A stretch of DNA of 64,000 bases from Haloarcula marismortui ATCC 43049 (GCF_000011085.1 NC_006396.1:2418001-2482000), one strand, 5' to 3'; shown: positions 42,230 to 50,357, counted from the stretch's first letter. Numbers and translations: made by a program. Notes: generated by a model from the sequence alone, not told the origin.

Positions 42230-45200
42230 ATGGCGACCGCCGAGAACACCGAACTCATCGACCGCTTCGAGGAGTTCTACCGCAACTACTACCGCAACGA
42301 GATCGGTGAGCTCGCCCAGAAATATCCGAACGACCAGAAATCGCTGTATATCGACTGGGACGACCTCTATCGTTTCGACCCGGATCTAGCCGACGACTAC
42401 CGGACAAAGCCCGAGCAGATACAGGAGTACGCCGAGGAGGCCCTTCGACTGTACGACCTCCCGGTTGATGTCTCGCTCGGGCAGGCCCACGTCCGCGTCC
42501 GGAACCTCCCCGAATCCGAGGACATCCGCGACCTGCGCCACGAACACCACGGGAACCTCGTTGCCGTCAGAGGTATCATCCGGAAGGCGACCGACGTGCG
42601 CCCGAAGGTTATCGAGGCGGCCTTCGAGTGCCAGCGCTGTGGCACGCTCACGCGTATCCCCCAGACCGCCGGTGACTTTCAGGAACCGCACGACTGCCAG
42701 GGCTGTGAACGACAGGGGCCGTTCCGGCTCAACACCGACCAGTCCCAGTTCATCGACGCCCAGAAGCTCCGTGTGCAGGAATCTCCCGAGGGACTGCGTG
42801 GTGGGGAGACGCCCCAGTCAATCGACATCAACATCGAGGACGACATCACGGGCCACGTCACCGCCGGTGACCACGTCCGCGTGACCGGCATCCTCAAACT
42901 CGACCAGCGGGGCAACGACAACGAAAAGTCCCCGATGTTCGATATCTACATGGAAGGCGTCAGCGTTGAAATCGAGGACGAGCAGTTCGAGGACATGGAG
43001 ATCACCGACGCTGACAAGACGGAAATCGTCGAACTCTCCAGCGAACCCGACATCTACGACAAGATGGTCGGGGCCATCGCCCCCTCTATCTACGGCTACG
43101 AAAAAGAGAAGCTCGCGATGATGCTCCAGCTCTTCTCCGGCGTAACGAAGGAGCTACCTGACGGATCTCGAATACGTGGGGACCTCCATATGTTGCTGAT
43201 AGGCGATCCGGGGACGGGGAAATGCGTCCACGGTGACACGCGGGTAACTCTCGCAGACGGCCACGAACGGCCGATACGAGAGGTCGTTGAATCGAACTTA
43301 GATGATCCCAAACCAGTCGACGACGGCGTGTGGGACACTGTTGATTTCGATGTCCCCTCACTCCAATCCGATGGAACAGTAGCCACGCAAAACGCGACCA
43401 AGGTTTGGAAGCGCAAGGCACCGGAAACACTGTATCGGATACGAACCGCGACTGGTCGTGAACTCGATGTAACCCCGTCCCATCCACTGTTCGTCCAATC
43501 TGACGGCCGGTTCCAGGCCAGGAAAGCCGAGGAATTAGAGAGCGGGACACACGTTGCCGTTCCACGGAAGGTTTCCACAAATGCCTGTAACGAACTGGAT
43601 GTCACGTTCCGACAATCACAGGCCCACAACAGAATCGATCTTGACCTTCCACCGCAGTGGACACCCGAACTGGCCCGTCTGATCGGTTATATTGTTGCCG
43701 AGGGGTACGTCGAGCAACGTCCGGATAACACGGGGTATGTTTCGATAACCAATAACGACCGCGAAGTTCTCGATGACGCGAAATCTGTTCTGGAGACACT
43801 GAACCTCAACGTTACGGAACGGAGTTCACACGAGGGGAAGACCGCCCGCGAACTGTTGTGTTCTGCCGGCGAGTTCGTGAGCTTCCTCGCATCTCTGGAC
43901 GAAACGTTGCTCCAGTCCTCGGCGGAGAGACGCGTTCCGCAAGATATCATGCGAGCCAGCGACAACGTTGTCACCGGATTTATTCGAGGCTATATCGAGG
44001 GAGAGGGACACGTTTCGACATCACAGAGAGAGATTACTGTTGCTTCGATGAGTAAACCGCTGCTGGAAGACGTTCGAACCTTGCTCGTCACACAGGGAAT
44101 CACGGCACAACTCCAACCCCGGAACAACGGCAGCTACCGGCTTCGAATCTCCGGGCAGTCTTTCCACGACTACGCCGAACAAATCGGATTCATCACAGCG
44201 CGAAAGACCGAAGCGTGCCGGCAATTCGAGGGAACCCACGGAAATACGAATCTTGATATTGTCCCCAATCTGGGTCCGGAACTCCGTCGCATCCGGGAAG
44301 CACTTGGACTGACCCAATCCGAGTGCGGCCTTCCGCGTTCGACGTATCAACACTACGAGCGGGGACGCCGAAACCCAAGCCGTGACAGTCTCGAATCGGT
44401 TCTCGATGCCTTCGAGACGCGGTTGGCTGAGATGAACAATGACACACCTATCAGCGACACTGCGCGTAGCGACGGCGGCGGAACGGGGTCACTCCGTCAA
44501 GACCTGAACGGACTCGCTGCACTCGTCGAAGGTGACATCGCGTGGGACCGGATCGAATCGATAGAACCCATCGAACACGATGAAAAGTGGGTCTACGACC
44601 TCGAAATCGAGGGGACACACAACTATCTCACTAACGGAGTTGTCTCGCATAACTCACAGATGCTGTCATATATCGAGAACATCGCGCCGCGCTCAGTCTA
44701 CACCTCCGGCAAAGGGTCGTCGAGCGCGGGGCTCACCGCGGCCGCCGTCCGCGACGACTTCGGCGACGGCCAGCAGTGGACGCTAGAGGCCGGCGCGCTC
44801 GTGCTCGCAGATCAGGGCATCGCCGCCATCGACGAACTCGATAAGATGTCTCCGGAAGACCGTTCGGCAATGCACGAAGCGCTGGAACAGCAGCGTATCA
44901 GCGTCTCGAAGGCTGGAATCAACGCGACACTCAAATCCCGCTGTTCGCTGCTGGGCGCGGCTAACCCGAAGTACGGTCGTTTCGACCAGTACGAGCCTAT
45001 CGGCGAGCAGATCGACCTCGAACCGGCACTCATCTCCCGGTTCGACCTCATTTTCACCGTGACGGACAAGCCTGACGAGGAAAAAGACCGGAACCTCGCC
45101 GAGCACATTATCCAGACCAACTACGCCGGTGAACTCCACACGCATCGGACGGAAAATCCCACGTCGAATTTCAGTGAGGAGGAGGTTGGGACCGTCACCG

Positions 45201-45757
45201 AAGAGGTTGCGCCGACTATCGAGCCGGACCTTCTCCGGAAGTACGTCGCCTACGCGAAGCGCAACTGCTTCCCGACGATGACCGAGGAGGCGAAATCGCG
45301 CATCGAGGACTTCTACGTCGACCTGCGGCTCAAGGGGCAGGACGAGGACGCACCGGTGCCGGTCACCGCCCGGAAACTGGAGGCGCTGGTCCGGCTTGCC
45401 GAGGCGTCCGCTCGAATTCGGCTGTCTGATACCGTCGACGAAGCTGACGCCGACCGGGCGGTCGACATCGCCCACTACTGCCTGAAGGAGATCGGCGTCG
45501 ACCCCGAAACCGGCGAGTTCGACGCCGACGTGGTCGAAACCGGCCAGTCGAAGACTCAGCGCGACCGCATCCAGAACATCAAAGGCATCATTTCCGACAT
45601 CGAGGACGAGTACGATGAGGGCGCACCCGCCGACGTAGTCATCGAACGCGCTGAGGAGGTCGGCATCGACGAGTCGAAGGCCGAACACGAGATTGACAAG
45701 CTGAAACAGAAAGGCGAGGTGTACGAACCTCGGACGGATCACCTTCGGACAACCTGA
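42230..45757 (+). CDS. mcm: MCM replicative helicase, interrupted by an intein
   Basis: 1175 codons, of which 332-808 are an intein. The spliced MCM would be 698 residues. N-terminal part: zinc site CQRCG...CQGC (~127-163) and OB fold. Walker A GDPGTGK|S is split exactly by the intein after GK. After it: ENIAPRSVYTSGKGSSSAGL, Walker B in IAAIDELDKM, sensor AANPKYGRF, the arginine finger LISRFDLIF, and a C-terminal winged helix (GAPADVVIERAEEVG). Replication fork helicase, 3'-5'. The start is 156 bases from the divergent BMP gene. The next gene begins one base after the stop. Confidence 0.96.
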   Translation: MATAENTELIDRFEEFYRNYYRNEIGELAQKYPNDQKSLYIDWDDLYRFDPDLADDYRTKPEQIQEYAEEALRLYDLPVDVSLGQAHVRVRNLPESEDIRDLRHEHHGNLVAVRGIIRKATDVRPKVIEAAFECQRCGTLTRIPQTAGDFQEPHDCQGCERQGPFRLNTDQSQFIDAQKLRVQESPEGLRGGETPQSIDINIEDDITGHVTAGDHVRVTGILKLDQRGNDNEKSPMFDIYMEGVSVEIEDEQFEDMEITDADKTEIVELSSEPDIYDKMVGAIAPSIYGYEKEKLAMMLQLFSGVTKELPDGSRIRGDLHMLLIGDPGTGKCVHGDTRVTLADGHERPIREVVESNLDDPKPVDDGVWDTVDFDVPSLQSDGTVATQNATKVWKRKAPETLYRIRTATGRELDVTPSHPLFVQSDGRFQARKAEELESGTHVAVPRKVSTNACNELDVTFRQSQAHNRIDLDLPPQWTPELARLIGYIVAEGYVEQRPDNTGYVSITNNDREVLDDAKSVLETLNLNVTERSSHEGKTARELLCSAGEFVSFLASLDETLLQSSAERRVPQDIMRASDNVVTGFIRGYIEGEGHVSTSQREITVASMSKPLLEDVRTLLVTQGITAQLQPRNNGSYRLRISGQSFHDYAEQIGFITARKTEACRQFEGTHGNTNLDIVPNLGPELRRIREALGLTQSECGLPRSTYQHYERGRRNPSRDSLESVLDAFETRLAEMNNDTPISDTARSDGGGTGSLRQDLNGLAALVEGDIAWDRIESIEPIEHDEKWVYDLEIEGTHNYLTNGVVSHNSQMLSYIENIAPRSVYTSGKGSSSAGLTAAAVRDDFGDGQQWTLEAGALVLADQGIAAIDELDKMSPEDRSAMHEALEQQRISVSKAGINATLKSRCSLLGAANPKYGRFDQYEPIGEQIDLEPALISRFDLIFTVTDKPDEEKDRNLAEHIIQTNYAGELHTHRTENPTSNFSEEEVGTVTEEVAPTIEPDLLRKYVAYAKRNCFPTMTEEAKSRIEDFYVDLRLKGQDEDAPVPVTARKLEALVRLAEASARIRLSDTVDEADADRAVDIAHYCLKEIGVDPETGEFDADVVETGQSKTQRDRIQNIKGIISDIEDEYDEGAPADVVIERAEEVGIDESKAEHEIDKLKQKGEVYEPRTDHLRTT
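43223..44653 (+). mobile_element. MCM intein with LAGLIDADG endonuclease and HTH domain
   Basis: 477 residues from Cys1 (CVHGDTRVTLADG) to the terminal VVSHN, followed by extein Ser. Splicing blocks are intact: block B VTPSHPLF, block F VYDLEIEGTHNYLTN. Two LAGLIDADG helices, LIGYIVAEGY (~43676) and FIRGYIEGEGHVS (~43978), keep their acidic residues, so the homing nuclease may be active. Between the second LAGLIDADG motif and the C-terminal splicing block lies a helix-turn-helix of XRE type (LRRIREALGLTQSECGLPRS, ~44280-44415). Base composition is visibly more A/T-rich than mcm. Confidence 0.93.
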
Positions 45758-45758
45758 T

Positions 45759-46031
45759 ATGGACCGTATCTCCGCACTCCGCAACATCGAGGAGGCGCTG
45801 GCCGAGTTCGAGGCAGGGTCACGGTCGCTCAGTGACCTCGAACGGGACGTTCGTGGGACGCTCCGGACCTATGCGACTGAGTTCGAGGGCGACCTGCAGG
45901 CCTATCGGGCAAACGGTGGAGCCACCGTGGATGGTCTCGTCGTCCTCGCACCGTCTGAGACAGCGGCCCGCGAGCGGGTTCAGGACCTCGTCTCAGATGC
46001 CGGCGAATTCACCGTCACAGTCGTCGAGTAG
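45759..46031 (+). CDS. Small haloarchaeal protein behind mcm
   Basis: 90 residues, helical then beta: RISALRNIEEALAEFEAGS, LERDVRGTLRTYATEFE, then GLVVLAPSETAARERVQDL and FTVTVVE. Charged and soluble, with no recognised domain. The ATG lies one base after the mcm stop, so it is probably cotranscribed with mcm. Confidence 0.72.
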   Translation: MDRISALRNIEEALAEFEAGSRSLSDLERDVRGTLRTYATEFEGDLQAYRANGGATVDGLVVLAPSETAARERVQDLVSDAGEFTVTVVE

Positions 46032-46168
46032 ACCTTTTCGAGCAGCGTAAGTACTGTCGGCACACTCCACACCTCCCCTACAGTACTGACTCCCGAGTCC
46101 GCCTGCCCCTATCTTTCTTGGCGACTAGCATATATATTCAGTCTACGGCTCATTCAATTCAGTAAAAT

Positions 46169-46174
46169 TTTATA
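46169..46174 (+). promoter_or_regulatory. TATA box ahead of the MinD-like cluster
   Basis: TTTATA within an A/T-rich stretch sits 24-29 bases before GTG 46198. It predicts a leaderless transcript starting at that GTG and separates this cluster from mcm. Confidence 0.6.
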
Positions 46175-46197
46175 GTAATAATAGCAATGTCTACCCA

Positions 46198-46533
46198 GTG
46201 CTACTCGTCGTCACGTACTCCCGGGCGGCACGCAGAGACCTGCGAAACGCCTGTCGTGCCCATGAAGACTGTGTCGTTCGGCAGTTCGGGAGAGCAGCGT
46301 TGTTCGCCGGAACAGAGTTCGGGGCCTTTCAGGCGCTTCGGCTCCACGAGAAACACGACCTTGACGTGCAGATCGAGCACGTCGAACCGTTCGAGCCGAC
46401 AGATGCTCCGGAGCATATCCGTGAGGCGGCCAAACGGTATGAGGCACGCGAGGAACCGGCGACGCCATACGAGCGGTTCGCGTCGGGGCGTGACCTCCCG
46501 GACCCGGACCAACTCCGAGGCGTTGACCTGTGA
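46198..46533 (+). CDS. Small haloarchaeal protein, first gene of the MinD-like cluster
   Basis: 111 residues from a leaderless GTG. Starts VTYSRAARRDLRNACRAHED, has FGRAALFAGTEFGAFQALRLHE and a charged acidic tail. No recognised domain. An ATG at 46187 opens a different frame, which has no conserved features. The final codons overlap the GTG of the next gene (GTGA), coupling translation. Confidence 0.68.
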   Translation: MLLVVTYSRAARRDLRNACRAHEDCVVRQFGRAALFAGTEFGAFQALRLHEKHDLDVQIEHVEPFEPTDAPEHIREAAKRYEAREEPATPYERFASGRDLPDPDQLRGVDL

Positions 46534-47339
46534 AGCTCCACGTCGCTGGAACCACGTACACGGGCGCCGTCGTCGACCTTCGCACCCGAAACGTCGACGG
46601 TCGGACCATCGCCGCAAGCATCCGCGGGCAGCAGTCCGTTCCGGTCGTTTCCTGTCCGGAACCACCGTCCGTGTACGCCTACGCAGGGCACGTCCATCCA
46701 TCGATGGGACTGCGAACGCGGACTGCGCTCGCGGCTGCCGCTCGGTCACGGGGATACGAGACGCCACAGGACGACGCCGTCACAGAGTGCCACGCCCAGC
46801 TGGCCGAACTTGAGTGCTCGCCGCCGGAGCTGCCGGACCCCATCGACCCAGTCCCGGAGTCGACCATCGACGGCCTGCAGGAAGCGGTCGCTACCCACCG
46901 CGGTCGCCTTACCGCTCGGCAGGCGGTCGGTGCGGACGACGGGGCGGTACAGGCCGCTCTCCGGGACGCGGCGACGGAACTGAGCGAACGGGAAACTCGA
47001 CAGGCTGCCGCCAGAGAGACACGCGAACTCCGTCGGGAGCGGGCACGCGCCTATCGGGACACGCTGGAGGAACAGCGTCGGCTTACCGACGAACTGGCCA
47101 ACCTCCGGCGGAGCGCCCGAGCGACCCTCGTTGACCGGTGCGCTGATACGTTCGCTCGGGCCATCGAAGCCGTTCCCGGGCCAGTTCCGGACGACCCGTT
47201 CGATGCCGACCCAGTAACGGCTGCCCTGGCCGTACTCCGGGTCGCCAAAACGCCTGCACCGGTCGTCCTCGAAACGGACCGGTTCAGGACCCCAGCGGCT
47301 GCGTCGGACTGTCTTGACGCCCCCGTCGTCCGTTGCTGA
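46530..47339 (+). CDS. Coiled-coil protein of the MinD-like cluster
   Basis: 269 residues from GTG 46530, which overlaps the previous stop. N-terminal ~100 residues are a globular domain (KLHVAGTTYTGAVVDLRTR, SVYAYAGHVHPSMGLRTR); the middle (~115-210) is a charged heptad-rich coiled coil (RETRELRRERARAYRDTLEE, LTDELANLRRSARATLV); the tail contains AALAVLRVAKTPAPVVLE. A coiled-coil partner for the MinD-like ATPase further on is an attractive idea but unproven. Confidence 0.7.
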   Translation: MKLHVAGTTYTGAVVDLRTRNVDGRTIAASIRGQQSVPVVSCPEPPSVYAYAGHVHPSMGLRTRTALAAAARSRGYETPQDDAVTECHAQLAELECSPPELPDPIDPVPESTIDGLQEAVATHRGRLTARQAVGADDGAVQAALRDAATELSERETRQAAARETRELRRERARAYRDTLEEQRRLTDELANLRRSARATLVDRCADTFARAIEAVPGPVPDDPFDADPVTAALAVLRVAKTPAPVVLETDRFRTPAAASDCLDAPVVRC

Positions 47340-47340
47340 G

Positions 47341-47348
47341 TTTTAAAT
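47341..47348 (+). promoter_or_regulatory. TATA box of the proline/alanine-rich gene
   Basis: TTTTAAAT is 24-31 bases before the ATG at 47372. It implies an internal promoter serving this gene and the MinD-like gene. Confidence 0.6.
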
Positions 47349-47371
47349 CGGAAGGCCGGGCCACCGTTCCT

Positions 47372-48139
47372 ATGGTTACCTTCGACTGTCGCGCCGAGCG
47401 AGTCGACGGCGTGACGCTCGTCACAGCGACTGTCGGCAACATCGCCGAACCGACTCGAATTACTGTCCAGAACCGTCTCGATGGCCCTCTCTGGCCGCCG
47501 AGAACGCAGGGCGTTCCTGCAGCCGGTTGGTCCGAGGACGGGTTCGAAGGGGTCCTCAGACCGGAAACGCAGGCGCTCGGGTACGCGACGCCAGCCCCAC
47601 CGTCTGCACAGCCGGCGGAGCTGGTGAGTACCGAGCCGGCACCTGATACGACGATAGCGGACGACCGACTCGACTCCGCGGACGCCGTTCTCAGAGAACT
47701 GGGTGACCCGTCGCCGCCTGCTGCTGCCGTCCCAACAGCTGAGTCAATGCACGTAGCCGAAGCCGCGAGCGCTGGGCCGCCCGGTCCAACGCCGGAACAA
47801 GACATCGAACCGCAGCCAGCGGGACGCCAACCGTCAGCCGAACCGAGGACTGCGGCCGGGCACCAGCCGGACCAGCAACTCCCCGATGCAGTTTCGCAGT
47901 GGCTCGAAACCGTTGCTGGGCGGGTCGACCGTGCTGAGCGGCTAGCCGAGGCGGATTCGCTGTCAGCAGCGACGGCTGCGGTTCGCACGGCAGACGGCCT
48001 GTCTGGCGTCCGGACGGTCGCGGCACGGGGCGAGACCGACGAGCAAATGCTCCGGGCGCTGGCCCGACGGGCCGAGCGGCTCGCCGACCGACGAGCGGCT
48101 GCCACGGTGCCGACTGAGACCCTGTCCCGCCTGGCATGA
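47372..48139 (+). CDS. Low-complexity-linker protein of the MinD-like cluster
   Basis: 255 residues. A beta-rich N-terminal domain (~1-75: VTFDCRAERVDGVTLVTATV, RITVQNRLDGPLWPP), a Pro/Ala/Glu linker (~80-175), and a helical C-terminal region (~178-250: AVSQWLETVAGRVDRAERL, EQMLRALARRAERLADRRA). No recognised family. The stop TGA overlaps the ATG of the MinD-like gene (ATGA), so the two products are made together. Confidence 0.72.
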   Translation: MVTFDCRAERVDGVTLVTATVGNIAEPTRITVQNRLDGPLWPPRTQGVPAAGWSEDGFEGVLRPETQALGYATPAPPSAQPAELVSTEPAPDTTIADDRLDSADAVLRELGDPSPPAAAVPTAESMHVAEAASAGPPGPTPEQDIEPQPAGRQPSAEPRTAAGHQPDQQLPDAVSQWLETVAGRVDRAERLAEADSLSAATAAVRTADGLSGVRTVAARGETDEQMLRALARRAERLADRRAAATVPTETLSRLA

Positions 48140-48852
48140 TTCTGGCAGTCACCGGCGGGAAAGGCGGTGTCGGCAAGTCGACTGTCGCGTACAATCTCGC
48201 GGCAGAACTCGACGCGCTCGAACGGACCGACAGCAGGGATTCGCACTCGACCGCGAACGCCGGGAGCGTCGTCGTTGACGGCGACCTCGGGATGGCGGAC
48301 CTCCCGTCCAGTCGTGGTCCCGACCTGCACGACGTTCTTGCCGACCGCGCCGACCCGCACGAAGCTGTCCGGGAGGACGGTCCAGTGACTCTCGTCCCAT
48401 GCGGACGAACGCTGGCCGGTGCTCGGAGTGCCGACTTGCGGGGGCTCACAGATGTATTCGCCGCGCTGGAGCGGACCTATCGCTGGGTCATTGTGGACTC
48501 GCCGGCGGGGATGCACGCCGACGTGGGGTTACCCCTTGCTGCTGCCGACGCTGCGGTACTCGTCACGACGCCGGAGGACGCGGCGCTCGCTGATGCGCTT
48601 CGGGTCCGGGCGCTGGCCCGCGAACTCGACGCCGGACTCTGTCGGGTCGTCCTCAACCGTGCCGGTCCGAACCCCGCGATCGGGGCTGTCGCGGACCGGT
48701 TCGGTGCGCCAGCTGTCGCTATCCCGAAAAGTGAGCCGCTAGCGACGGCACAGGCACATGGACAGCCGCTCCGAGAAACAGCGCCGGACACGTCGGCTCG
48801 GCGCTCGATTGAATCGCTCGCTGACGCCGTCTATTCCTGTAGCTCGGTGTAG
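48136..48852 (+). CDS. MinD/ParA-like P-loop ATPase
   Basis: 238 residues of the deviant-Walker ATPase family. Begins ILAVTGGKGGVGKSTVAYNL with both signature lysines, then VVDGDLGMADLP (switch I region), VIVDSPAGMHADVGLPL (Walker B/switch II) and VLNRAGPNPAI. Relatives position membrane, DNA or surface structures by ATP-driven dimerisation. The C-terminus (RRSIESLADAVYSCSSV) does not look like the amphipathic membrane helix of bacterial MinD. It overlaps the preceding gene by four bases and the convergent tfb by 22. Confidence 0.9.
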   Translation: MILAVTGGKGGVGKSTVAYNLAAELDALERTDSRDSHSTANAGSVVVDGDLGMADLPSSRGPDLHDVLADRADPHEAVREDGPVTLVPCGRTLAGARSADLRGLTDVFAALERTYRWVIVDSPAGMHADVGLPLAAADAAVLVTTPEDAALADALRVRALARELDAGLCRVVLNRAGPNPAIGAVADRFGAPAVAIPKSEPLATAQAHGQPLRETAPDTSARRSIESLADAVYSCSSV

Positions 48853-49691
48853 GTCCCACGTAGCGTGACCGGCGTTACGTCCGCTGTCTCTGCCGCTTTG
48901 GCCTGCGTAAGTGCCACGTCCTGCTCCTGAGCCGCAGTATAGAGACACGCCGCTGCGACGCCGGCCGGATTGCGCCCGCTGACCAGCCCGCGGTCCTGTG
49001 CCTCGTCGACGAGCTGTTCCGCGCGCTGGCGGACCGCCGTCGGCAGGTCCAGCGTCGTCGCGAACCGAGGGACGTACTCGCGTGGGTCAATCGGACCGGT
49101 CGGCAGCCCGAGCTCCCTGTTCAGAGCGTCGTAGGCCGCGCGGAGTTCCGCCTGTGTCGCCTTGGCGACGGTACAGAGTTCGTCGACGGTCCGGGCAACA
49201 CCTTCGGTCCGGCAGGTGGCGTAGATGGCCGCGGCCGCAAACCCTTCCAGCGTCCGTCCCTGCAGCAGATCCTCGTTCTGTGCGGATTCGAACAGCACAC
49301 AGGCCCGGTCCCGAATCGCGTCTGAAAGCGCCATTGAGCTGATGATACGTCGGATCTCGGTGAAGGCGTACACCTTGTTTCGCTCGCGTTTCGAGCTGAT
49401 CTGGGCGCGGTTGTGCTCGCGCCGGAGGCGGGCGAACTGCCGCCGCTTGCGCCCTTTCAGCCGTGTCGACCGGCCGATCTTCGTCGAGAGCCCGCGGTCG
49501 TGACGCGACCGCGTCAGCGGCGCGCCCGTGCGTGCCCGGTCGGTGTCGTCATCCTCGAATGACCGCCACTCCGGGCCGGGGTCGATGGCGTCCTCGCCGA
49601 CGACCAGCCCACAGCTGCCACAGACCGATTCGACGCCCTGTTGTTTGACTGACCCGTTACACTCCGGACATTGCGTTACCGTCGTACTCAT
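48831..49691 (-). CDS. tfb: Transcription initiation factor TFB
   Basis: 286 residues. N-terminal zinc ribbon (CPECNGSV...CGSCGLVV, ~8-28), the B-finger region (EWRSFEDDD...RTGAPLTRSRHDRGLST), and two cyclin-like repeats (~105-190 and ~200-285) with the TFBIIB signature GRTLEGFAAAAIYATCR and its second-repeat counterpart GRNPAGVAAACLYTAA. TFB recruits RNA polymerase to TBP at TATA/BRE promoters; haloarchaea have several with different promoter preferences. Its 3' end overlaps the MinD-like gene by 22 bases. TATA box on the minus strand at 49718-49725. Confidence 0.95.
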   Translation of the reverse strand: MSTTVTQCPECNGSVKQQGVESVCGSCGLVVGEDAIDPGPEWRSFEDDDTDRARTGAPLTRSRHDRGLSTKIGRSTRLKGRKRRQFARLRREHNRAQISSKRERNKVYAFTEIRRIISSMALSDAIRDRACVLFESAQNEDLLQGRTLEGFAAAAIYATCRTEGVARTVDELCTVAKATQAELRAAYDALNRELGLPTGPIDPREYVPRFATTLDLPTAVRQRAEQLVDEAQDRGLVSGRNPAGVAAACLYTAAQEQDVALTQAKAAETADVTPVTLRGTYTELQE

Positions 49692-49717
49692 GTTTCCACC
49701 TACGGCTGGATGGAGGG

Positions 49718-49725
49718 TTAAAAAA
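49718..49725 (-). promoter_or_regulatory. TATA box of tfb
   Basis: TTTTTTAA on the minus strand, 27-34 bases before the tfb ATG at 49691, fitting a leaderless transcript. Confidence 0.55.
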
Positions 49726-49767
49726 CCGATGCAACGGCGGGTTTCCGGGCGCTTTTCGGCGAAACTG

Positions 49768-49786
49768 CCTACCGGTAACCGGTAGG
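49768..49786. promoter_or_regulatory. Palindrome between divergent tfb and the 49863 gene
   Basis: CCTACCGGT-A-ACCGGTAGG: two perfect 9-base arms around a single A. A further GGTAGGC overlaps its right side and pairs with GCCTACC on the left. It lies about 45 bases from either TATA box, suited to an operator serving both promoters. Confidence 0.55.
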
Positions 49787-49830
49787 TAGGCACTGGGATT
49801 GACACCAGCGCCTATCGAGATACCGACAGC

Positions 49831-49837
49831 ATTAAAT
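49831..49837 (+). promoter_or_regulatory. TATA box of the 49863 gene
   Basis: ATTAAAT is 26-32 bases before the ATG at 49863, predicting a leaderless transcript. Confidence 0.55.
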
Positions 49838-49862
49838 TCCAATGTAGAGAAGGAAATTTTTA

Positions 49863-50357
49863 ATGGCATTGTCGGATATCGCCGCTGGTGTCGAGGTCAC
49901 GACCCGCCAGCGTGACCGCGGCGTCGCTGCTGTCGACGAGACGGACGCGCCCCTCCCGGAGCGGCTGGCCCCGTTTGCCGACGACCTCCCGTGTTCGGCG
50001 GCGGCAGCGGCAACTGTCGTTGAGGCCTACGCAGCCGGTCGGAGTGTGGGCGATGCAGGCCGCGCCGCCGGTGTTGCGCCCGTGCTGGCCGCAAAGACGC
50101 TCCATCTCGTCGGTGAGCAAGTCTCACCGGTCGGCCCACAGGGCCGTGAGATAATCGCCGATTGGCTTGCCGGAGACCTCTCCCGCAGCGACGCCATCGC
50201 ACTCGCTGACGTGACTGAACAGGAGTTTGCCCTGGCTGTGTACATCGAGACGCACGACCCGCTGCCCGCGGCCCGTGACGCCGTCGAGGGAGCGCTTACA
50301 ACTGAGGACCGGGACCCGTTAGGAGAGACGATGAGCGACGTCGGCGAGCTGCTGTGA
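49863..50357 (+). CDS. Haloarchaeal protein divergent from tfb
   Basis: 164 residues, mostly helical with small HTH-like repeats: AAAAATVVEAYAAGRSVGDAGRAAGVAPVLAAKTL resembles a resolvase-like or sigma-like helix-turn-helix, and a second similar stretch covers GREIIADWLAGDLSRSDAIALADVTEQEFALAVY. Possibly a DNA-binding regulator. The 3' end (MSDVGELL stop) is repeated just downstream at 50393-50418. Confidence 0.7.
   Translation: MALSDIAAGVEVTTRQRDRGVAAVDETDAPLPERLAPFADDLPCSAAAAATVVEAYAAGRSVGDAGRAAGVAPVLAAKTLHLVGEQVSPVGPQGREIIADWLAGDLSRSDAIALADVTEQEFALAVYIETHDPLPAARDAVEGALTTEDRDPLGETMSDVGELL
50332..50357 (+). repeat. Short tail repeat, copy 1
   Basis: 26 bases encoding the last eight residues and stop of the preceding gene. 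They match 50393-50418 at 22 of 26 positions, an offset of 61 bases, with weaker similarity continuing ~20 bases further. Confidence 0.7.

What the first reader, a model, noticed from the sequence alone, without database searches (positions are those of the whole stretch)
46169..49863. MinD/ParA-like ATPase inside a cluster of uncharacterised haloarchaeal genes facing a TFB
Sequence: between mcm and tfb sit a leaderless operon of a 111-residue protein, a coiled-coil protein, a beta-domain plus low-complexity-linker protein, and a MinD/ParA-like ATPase, chained by GTGA and ATGA overlaps with one internal promoter. The ATPase keeps both signature lysines but lacks the terminal amphipathic helix of MinD. 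Family knowledge: such ATPases position cargo with a dedicated partner. Inference: the coiled-coil and linker proteins could be the partner and adaptor of a new positioning or assembly system.
Basis: partly seen in the sequence, partly recalled or inferred. Interest (0 to 1): 0.62.

Follow-up and report, generated by a model that had tools for sequence, protein, structure and literature searches.

The report
Haloarchaeal MinD1 and its coupled partner
A salt-loving archaeon carries a MinD-type positioning ATPase, the ortholog of the known but unexplained MinD1 of Haloferax volcanii, and comparison of over a hundred genomes shows that it comes as an inseparable pair with one undescribed protein, while the two other genes next to it form a separate pair that is often absent.

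Summary
The genes are as described, but they are two two-gene modules, not one four-gene system. Module 1 is DUF7855-DUF7856 (coiled coil). Module 2 is DUF7857 (beta-sandwich, linker, helical end) plus a MinD-family ATPase that is, by synteny, the ortholog of H. volcanii MinD1 (HVO_0225). Each pair overlaps by exactly 4 nt (module 2: 116 of 121 loci; module 1: 97 of 104; junction between modules: 3 of 99), and each has its own conserved TATA box. In 116 haloarchaeal genomes the ATPase never occurs without DUF7857 (81 both, 4 DUF7857 only, 0 ATPase only, 31 neither), but 15 of the 81 lack DUF7855/7856 and 9 genomes have DUF7855 without the ATPase. One genus that keeps DUF7857 but lost the ATPase has lost exactly the linker segment with its conserved helix-PP motif, which points to the ATPase-binding part. 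A derived clade has moved the pair beside a DUF7125 ATPase and a type IV pilus/secretion-like cluster. Best reading: MinD1 and DUF7857 form an ATP-switched ATPase-adaptor pair; its cargo is unknown. No complex could be modelled.

The parts
46164..46175 (+). TATA-like box of the DUF7855-DUF7856 unit
   Evidence: Sequence; conserved A/T 6-mer in 79 of 105 loci
46198..46533 (+). DUF7855 (111 aa), first gene of module 1
   Evidence: PF25253, 1.5e-47; start codon of DUF7856 inside its last 4 nt in 97 of 104 loci
46530..47339 (+). DUF7856 (269 aa), head plus coiled-coil hairpin, second gene of module 1
   Evidence: PF25254, 1.1e-66; AlphaFold2 mean pLDDT 96.4, pTM 0.82
47341..47348 (+). TATA-like box TTTTAAAT of the DUF7857-MinD1 unit
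   Evidence: Sequence; A/T 6-mer in 60 of 114 loci against 0 in the control stretch
47372..48139 (+). DUF7857 (255 aa), partner protein of module 2
   Evidence: PF25256, 1.6e-32; present in all 81 genomes with the ATPase
47372..47641 (+). DUF7857 N-terminal beta-sandwich (residues 1-90)
   Evidence: AlphaFold2 pLDDT about 97; generic beta-sandwich matches, best Z 7.1
47663..47731 (+). DUF7857 helix plus PP motif (about residues 98-120), proposed MinD1-binding segment
   Evidence: Present in all intact DUF7857 next to the ATPase, absent in 18 of 18 without it, all of one genus
47873..48136 (+). DUF7857 C-terminal helical domain (residues 168-255), lost in the short-form clade
   Evidence: pLDDT about 95; in 80 of 95 loci with DUF7855/7856 nearby, in none of the short-form clade
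48136..48852 (+). MinD1-type ATPase (238 aa)
   Evidence: PF10609 above cut-off, TIGR01969 1.1e-32 but below cut-off; nearest solved relatives archaeal MinD 1hyq, 1g3q, 1ion
48154..48183 (+). Deviant Walker A GGKGGVGKST with Lys9 and Lys14
   Evidence: Alignment of 39 orthologs
48831..49691 (-). Convergent transcription factor B gene (context, not part of the module)
   Evidence: PF00382 1.8e-41
45759..46031 (+). DUF7854 between mcm and module 1 (context)
   Evidence: PF25252 2e-35

Best explanation
The stretch holds two independent transcription units, each of two translationally coupled genes. The second unit makes DUF7857 and MinD1 together. SHOWN (by genome comparison): in the genomes sampled MinD1 does not occur without DUF7857, the exact 4-nt overlap is kept even where the pair has moved, and the two are usually lost together. 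INFERRED: they form a complex in which MinD1 is an ATP-dependent dimer switch of the MinD/ParA kind and DUF7857 is its dedicated partner/adaptor; the conserved helix-PP motif in DUF7857's linker contacts MinD1, the beta-sandwich is the common docking part, and the C-terminal helical domain is an extra arm present mostly in species that also have DUF7855-DUF7856. INFERRED, weaker: the cargo is a membrane machine; in one clade the pair sits beside a type IV pilus/secretion-like cluster. MinD1 has no membrane-binding helix of its own, so membrane or cargo targeting would have to come from DUF7857.
For: Co-occurrence of DUF7857 and MinD1 in 116 genomes: 81/4/0/31, Fisher p 3.6e-24, phi 0.92, against phi 0.54 for DUF7855 and MinD1. 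A start codon for MinD1 at exactly -4 in 116 of 121 loci; the remaining five are a 2-nt gap or shifted/disrupted reading frames. Own conserved TATA box. Pair kept after relocation in Halorubrum (e.g. L019, L021, L023) and in the short-form clade. Joint-loss sites: G018 and G054 have DUF7856 abutting TFB; G100 has DUF7856 fused to DUF7858 with DUF7857, MinD1 and TFB all gone. In one genus (20 genomes) DUF7857 keeps beta and C-terminal domains but lacks the motif in 18 of 18 copies, and MinD1 is missing in 19 of 20. Short forms are one clade (support 100/99), and most stand beside DUF7125, TrkA_C, HerA, DUF7310, DUF7311 and T2SSE genes.
Against: No complex was modelled or measured. The motif argument rests on one genus, so probably one evolutionary event; losing linker and ATPase together could be coincidence. 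4-nt overlaps are common in prokaryotic operons (general knowledge). DUF7857 survives without MinD1 in that genus, so it has some function of its own. Deleting all four minD genes in H. volcanii did not affect growth or division and added nothing to the motility defect of the minD2/minD4 double mutant (PMC11588486, PMC11621097). Co-variation between the two proteins was uninterpretable (effective 49 sequences). The pilus neighbourhood follows one clade and may reflect one transposition.
Confidence: 0.62

Rival explanations
1. One four-gene positioning or assembly system: DUF7855, DUF7856 (coiled-coil partner), DUF7857 (adaptor) and MinD1 all work together.
For: All four are neighbours in most genera, with 66 genomes holding DUF7855 and MinD1 together; the C-terminal domain of DUF7857 was seen only in genomes or genera that hold DUF7855/7856, which would fit an adaptor bridging both modules.
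Against: 15 of 81 MinD1 genomes lack DUF7855/7856; 9 genomes have DUF7855 without MinD1; separate promoters; no conserved junction between DUF7856 and DUF7857 (3 of 99 overlaps); modules split apart in part of Halorubrum.
Confidence: 0.2
2. Regulatory switch rather than positioning: MinD1 works like FleN/FlhG, binding a regulator in one nucleotide state, with DUF7857 as effector and perhaps the facing TFB as target.
For: After archaeal MinD the best solved relatives are FleN and FlhG; it faces a TFB, and H. volcanii TFB variant HVO_0226 is named among possible regulators of motility and shape (PMC13286277).
Against: The pair persists away from this TFB in many genomes; the orientation to TFB is convergent, not co-transcribed.
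Confidence: 0.12
3. Ordinary redundant MinD paralog: MinD1 backs up MinD2/MinD4 in polar organisation, and DUF7857 is a minor accessory such as HVO_0596 is for MinD2.
For: No phenotype reported for MinD1; HVO_0596, the operon neighbour of MinD2 with a predicted interface, had no phenotype on deletion (PMC11588486).
Against: MinD1 is lost together with DUF7857 in several lineages and keeps it on relocation, which a mere backup would not need.
Confidence: 0.15
4. Operon inertia: adjacency and overlap are inherited and selectively neutral, with no physical or functional link.
For: The short-form clade is monophyletic, so much of the relocated adjacency counts as few events.
Against: Exact overlap kept over deep divergence (ATPase identity down to 46%) and at least two relocations; joint losses in several families; other gene junctions in the same stretch are not conserved.
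Confidence: 0.1

Closest known systems
Haloferax volcanii MinD1 (HVO_0225)
   Same: Same position between mcm (HVO_0220) and a TFB (HVO_0226); nine other Haloferax loci show the gene order with this ATPase family; H. volcanii is positive for DUF7854-DUF7857 (control genome)
   Different: The H. volcanii protein itself was not retrieved; its function is undescribed and no partner is named in the papers read
Archaeal and bacterial MinD (1hyq, 1g3q, 3q9l)
   Same: Deviant Walker A with two lysines; same family by sequence profile
   Different: No C-terminal membrane helix; score below the TIGR01969 cut-off; proposed partner is DUF7857, not MinE
MinD2 with HVO_0596 in H. volcanii
   Same: Haloarchaeal MinD paralog with a small conserved operon partner
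   Different: HVO_0596 lies downstream and its deletion had no phenotype (PMC11588486); DUF7857 lies upstream, overlaps by 4 nt and has a beta-sandwich
FleN/FlhG
   Same: Next-best solved relatives of the ATPase
   Different: Those act with flagellar regulators (family knowledge); no counterpart of DUF7857 is known to me there
Tad pilus TadZ/CpaE ATPases (from memory, a lead)
   Same: MinD-like ATPase next to a T2SSE pilus/secretion ATPase, as in the short-form clade
   Different: In those loci the DUF7125 ATPase may be the true counterpart; most MinD1 genes are not near such a cluster

Membership tests
MinD/ParA P-loop ATPase superfamily | Profile match above curated cut-off | tested here: met
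   PF10609 48.3 bits (cut-off 27.1), PF01656 32.8 (25.4), PF13614 29.9 (27)
MinD/ParA P-loop ATPase superfamily | Deviant Walker A with signature lysine plus P-loop lysine | tested here: met
   K9 invariant, K14 nearly invariant in 39 orthologs
NCBIfam TIGR01969 archaeal MinD subfamily | Score above curated cut-off | tested here: not met
   113.3 bits against cut-off 201.75; so not filed as a member of that model
Canonical MinD | C-terminal amphipathic membrane helix | tested here: not met
   Protein ends with the core; tails not conserved across orthologs
Canonical MinD | MinE/MinC partner and oscillation | not testable with these tools
   Needs localisation and biochemistry
MinD1 (HVO_0225) orthologs | Same syntenic place between mcm and TFB | tested here: met
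   HVO_0220 mcm, HVO_0225 MinD1, HVO_0226 TFB; Haloferax loci L090, L092, L095, L112, L119, L121, L124, L125, L131
MinD1 (HVO_0225) orthologs | Direct sequence comparison with HVO_0225 | not tested
   H. volcanii locus not returned by the scan
Pfam DUF7857 | Profile match above cut-off | tested here: met
   113.1 bits, cut-off 27
SMC/Rad50 head-and-coil fold for DUF7856 | Significant structural match including the head, and Walker A | tested here: inconclusive
   Foldseek best E 0.03 with SMC/Rad50 heads filling most of the top 12; Z 8.9 over 258 residues but rmsd 6.9; no Walker A in the alignment

The most novel reading that the evidence does not exclude
DUF7857-MinD1 is a transferable ATPase-adaptor module, unrelated to MinE, ParB or other known partners, that organises haloarchaeal membrane machines: the long form through DUF7855-DUF7856 (the latter a possible degenerate SMC/Rad50-like coiled-coil protein), and the short form a type IV pilus-like system together with DUF7125.
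Probability: 0.17. Interest if true: 0.75.

Novelty: new variant of a known kind. Interest (0 to 1): 0.5.

Why it matters
Haloarchaea carry several MinD paralogs, but the papers read name no MinE-like partner for any of them, and MinD1 has no known role. A single obligate, translationally coupled partner with a candidate binding motif makes MinD1 testable: which protein to delete, tag and mutate, and in which background. It also redirects effort away from the coiled-coil neighbour.

Tried and rejected
A conserved-stretch genome scan with DUF7857 failed (alignment too variable); the ATPase core was used instead. Natural DUF7857-ATPase fusions to model the complex as one chain: only L139 and L075, both frameshifted and without the motif, so not used. 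Inter-protein co-variation: 114 pairs, effective 49, top pairs scattered, no conclusion. Fold searches: the DUF7857 beta domain matches only generic beta-sandwich/immunoglobulin-like folds, none at Z 8 or more; the C-terminal helical domain was barely tested. DUF7856 as an SMC/Rad50 relative: suggestive order of hits but not significant. DUF7857 outside Halobacteria: none over cut-off in 197 genomes of the phylum, one weak hit below it. No paper in the library names these DUFs.

Full report
What is there. Between mcm and a convergent TFB gene the window holds DUF7854, DUF7855, DUF7856, DUF7857 and a MinD-type ATPase, all on the plus strand. All the unnamed proteins are Pfam families with neighbouring accessions, which suggests (inference) that curators built them from one syntenic stretch; no paper in the library names them.

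What the ATPase is. It passes the Pfam ParA, CbiA and AAA_31 cut-offs but stays below the archaeal MinD cut-off of NCBIfam. The ortholog profile finds solved archaeal MinD first and FleN/FlhG next. In H. volcanii mcm is HVO_0220 (PMC3972481), MinD1 is HVO_0225 (PMC11588486) and a TFB variant is HVO_0226 (PMC13286277); nine other Haloferax loci show the same gene order with this ATPase. So by synteny this is MinD1. Its function is not described; removing all four minD genes left growth and division normal, and the quadruple mutant swims like the minD2/minD4 double mutant.

Two modules, not one. In 116 haloarchaeal genomes drawn evenly, DUF7855 occurs in 75, DUF7856 in 73, DUF7857 in 85 and MinD1 in 81. 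MinD1 scores in these genomes stop at 122 bits, with the next paralog at 99, so the threshold is clean. DUF7855 with DUF7856: 73 both, 2 DUF7855 only, 0 DUF7856 only, 41 neither. DUF7857 with MinD1: 81, 4, 0, 31. Across the modules the link is weaker: DUF7855 with MinD1 66, 9, 15, 26 (the table for DUF7856 with MinD1 entered there was wrong and was corrected). Gene junctions say the same: the downstream start codon lies exactly 4 nt inside the upstream gene in 116 of 121 DUF7857-MinD1 loci and 97 of 104 DUF7855-DUF7856 loci, but in 3 of 99 DUF7856-DUF7857 junctions and 0 of 101 DUF7854-DUF7855 junctions. Conserved TATA boxes stand before DUF7855 and DUF7857 and not before MinD1.

Movement and loss. 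In part of Halorubrum the DUF7857-MinD1 pair has left the mcm region while DUF7855-DUF7856 stayed. G018 and G054 have lost both DUF7857 and MinD1 between DUF7856 and TFB; in G100 one deletion removed DUF7857, MinD1 and TFB and fused DUF7856 to DUF7858; G029 and G047 keep only DUF7855 between mcm and TFB. Genera that contain both states (g9, g10, g15) imply several separate joint losses; this rests on taxonomy labels, not on a species tree.

The partner's anatomy. AlphaFold2 gives DUF7857 a confident beta-sandwich (1-90), a flexible middle with short helices, and a confident helical C-terminal domain (about 172-255). The middle carries a conserved helix followed by a PP motif. It is present in every intact DUF7857 next to MinD1 (112 by profile, 4 more by eye; the other three are frameshifted or damaged). 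In genus g3 all 18 DUF7857 copies run straight from the beta domain (profile 1-93) to the C-terminal domain (about 145-232) with the motif gone, and MinD1 is missing in 19 of 20 genomes. The one exception, a fragmentary assembly (G125), has MinD1 next to a second, motif-bearing DUF7857 piece and may be contaminated. Conversely the short-form clade has beta domain and motif but no C-terminal domain and no DUF7855/7856. This suggests motif = MinD1 side, C-terminal domain = other side. The caveat is that each pattern is one clade, and about fifteen loci have DUF7855/7856 without a well-scoring C-terminal domain.

The short-form clade. It is monophyletic (100/99). L029 and L030, the first branch within it, still lie between mcm and TFB; most others lie beside a second MinD-like ATPase with a KGGCGKT P-loop (DUF7125), membrane proteins one of which has a weak TrkA_C match, a HerA-like ATPase, DUF7310, DUF7311, a DUF7382 protein and a T2SSE secretion/pilus ATPase. 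That is the only hint at cargo, and it may stem from one transposition.

Mechanism proposed. MinD-family ATPases dimerise with ATP and are reset by a partner (family knowledge). Here the only gene that tracks the ATPase is DUF7857, made in a coupled way, so it is the most likely partner. Without its own membrane helix MinD1 would depend on DUF7857 for targeting. Shown: genome-level coupling. Inferred: binding, motif role, switch, cargo.

The coiled-coil protein. DUF7856 is predicted with high confidence as a small head built from both termini plus a coiled-coil hairpin. SMC/Rad50 heads dominate its weak Foldseek list and align over the whole chain, but not significantly and without Walker A: a lead only.

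Noticed in passing
42230-45757: The MCM gene carries an in-frame intein interrupting its Walker A region (GTGK/C...HNS).
   Followed up: no
L010, L035-L041, L044, L047, L048, L062, L177-L187, L192: Relocated short DUF7857-MinD1 pairs stand beside DUF7125, TrkA_C-like, HerA-like, DUF7310, DUF7311 and T2SSE genes, a type IV pilus/secretion-like cluster.
   Followed up: partly
46530-47339: DUF7856 is predicted as a head-plus-coiled-coil protein whose weak structural matches are mostly SMC/Rad50 heads; no Walker A.
   Followed up: partly
L042 4260-4931 (G001): MinD1 with the P-loop lysine replaced (GGKGGVGTST), so ATP hydrolysis is doubtful there.
   Followed up: no
L061 5095-13421 (G086): A fragment with the first 34 codons of DUF7855, then an ORF of about 2400 codons, then an intact DUF7855: looks like an insertion with a partial duplicate of the gene start.
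   Followed up: no
L058 4770-5384 (G100): Deletion fusing the N-terminal part of DUF7856 to the end of DUF7858, removing DUF7857, MinD1 and TFB.
   Followed up: partly
L191 (G125 contig C33): The only MinD1 in genus g3, with a motif-bearing DUF7857 piece at the contig edge and another MinD-like ATPase next to it; fragmentary assembly, possible contamination or transfer.
   Followed up: partly
L139 4086-5552 and L075 4314-5537: DUF7857 and MinD1 joined in one frame by frameshifts, in a Haloarcula rara chromosome record and in a metagenome assembly.
   Followed up: partly
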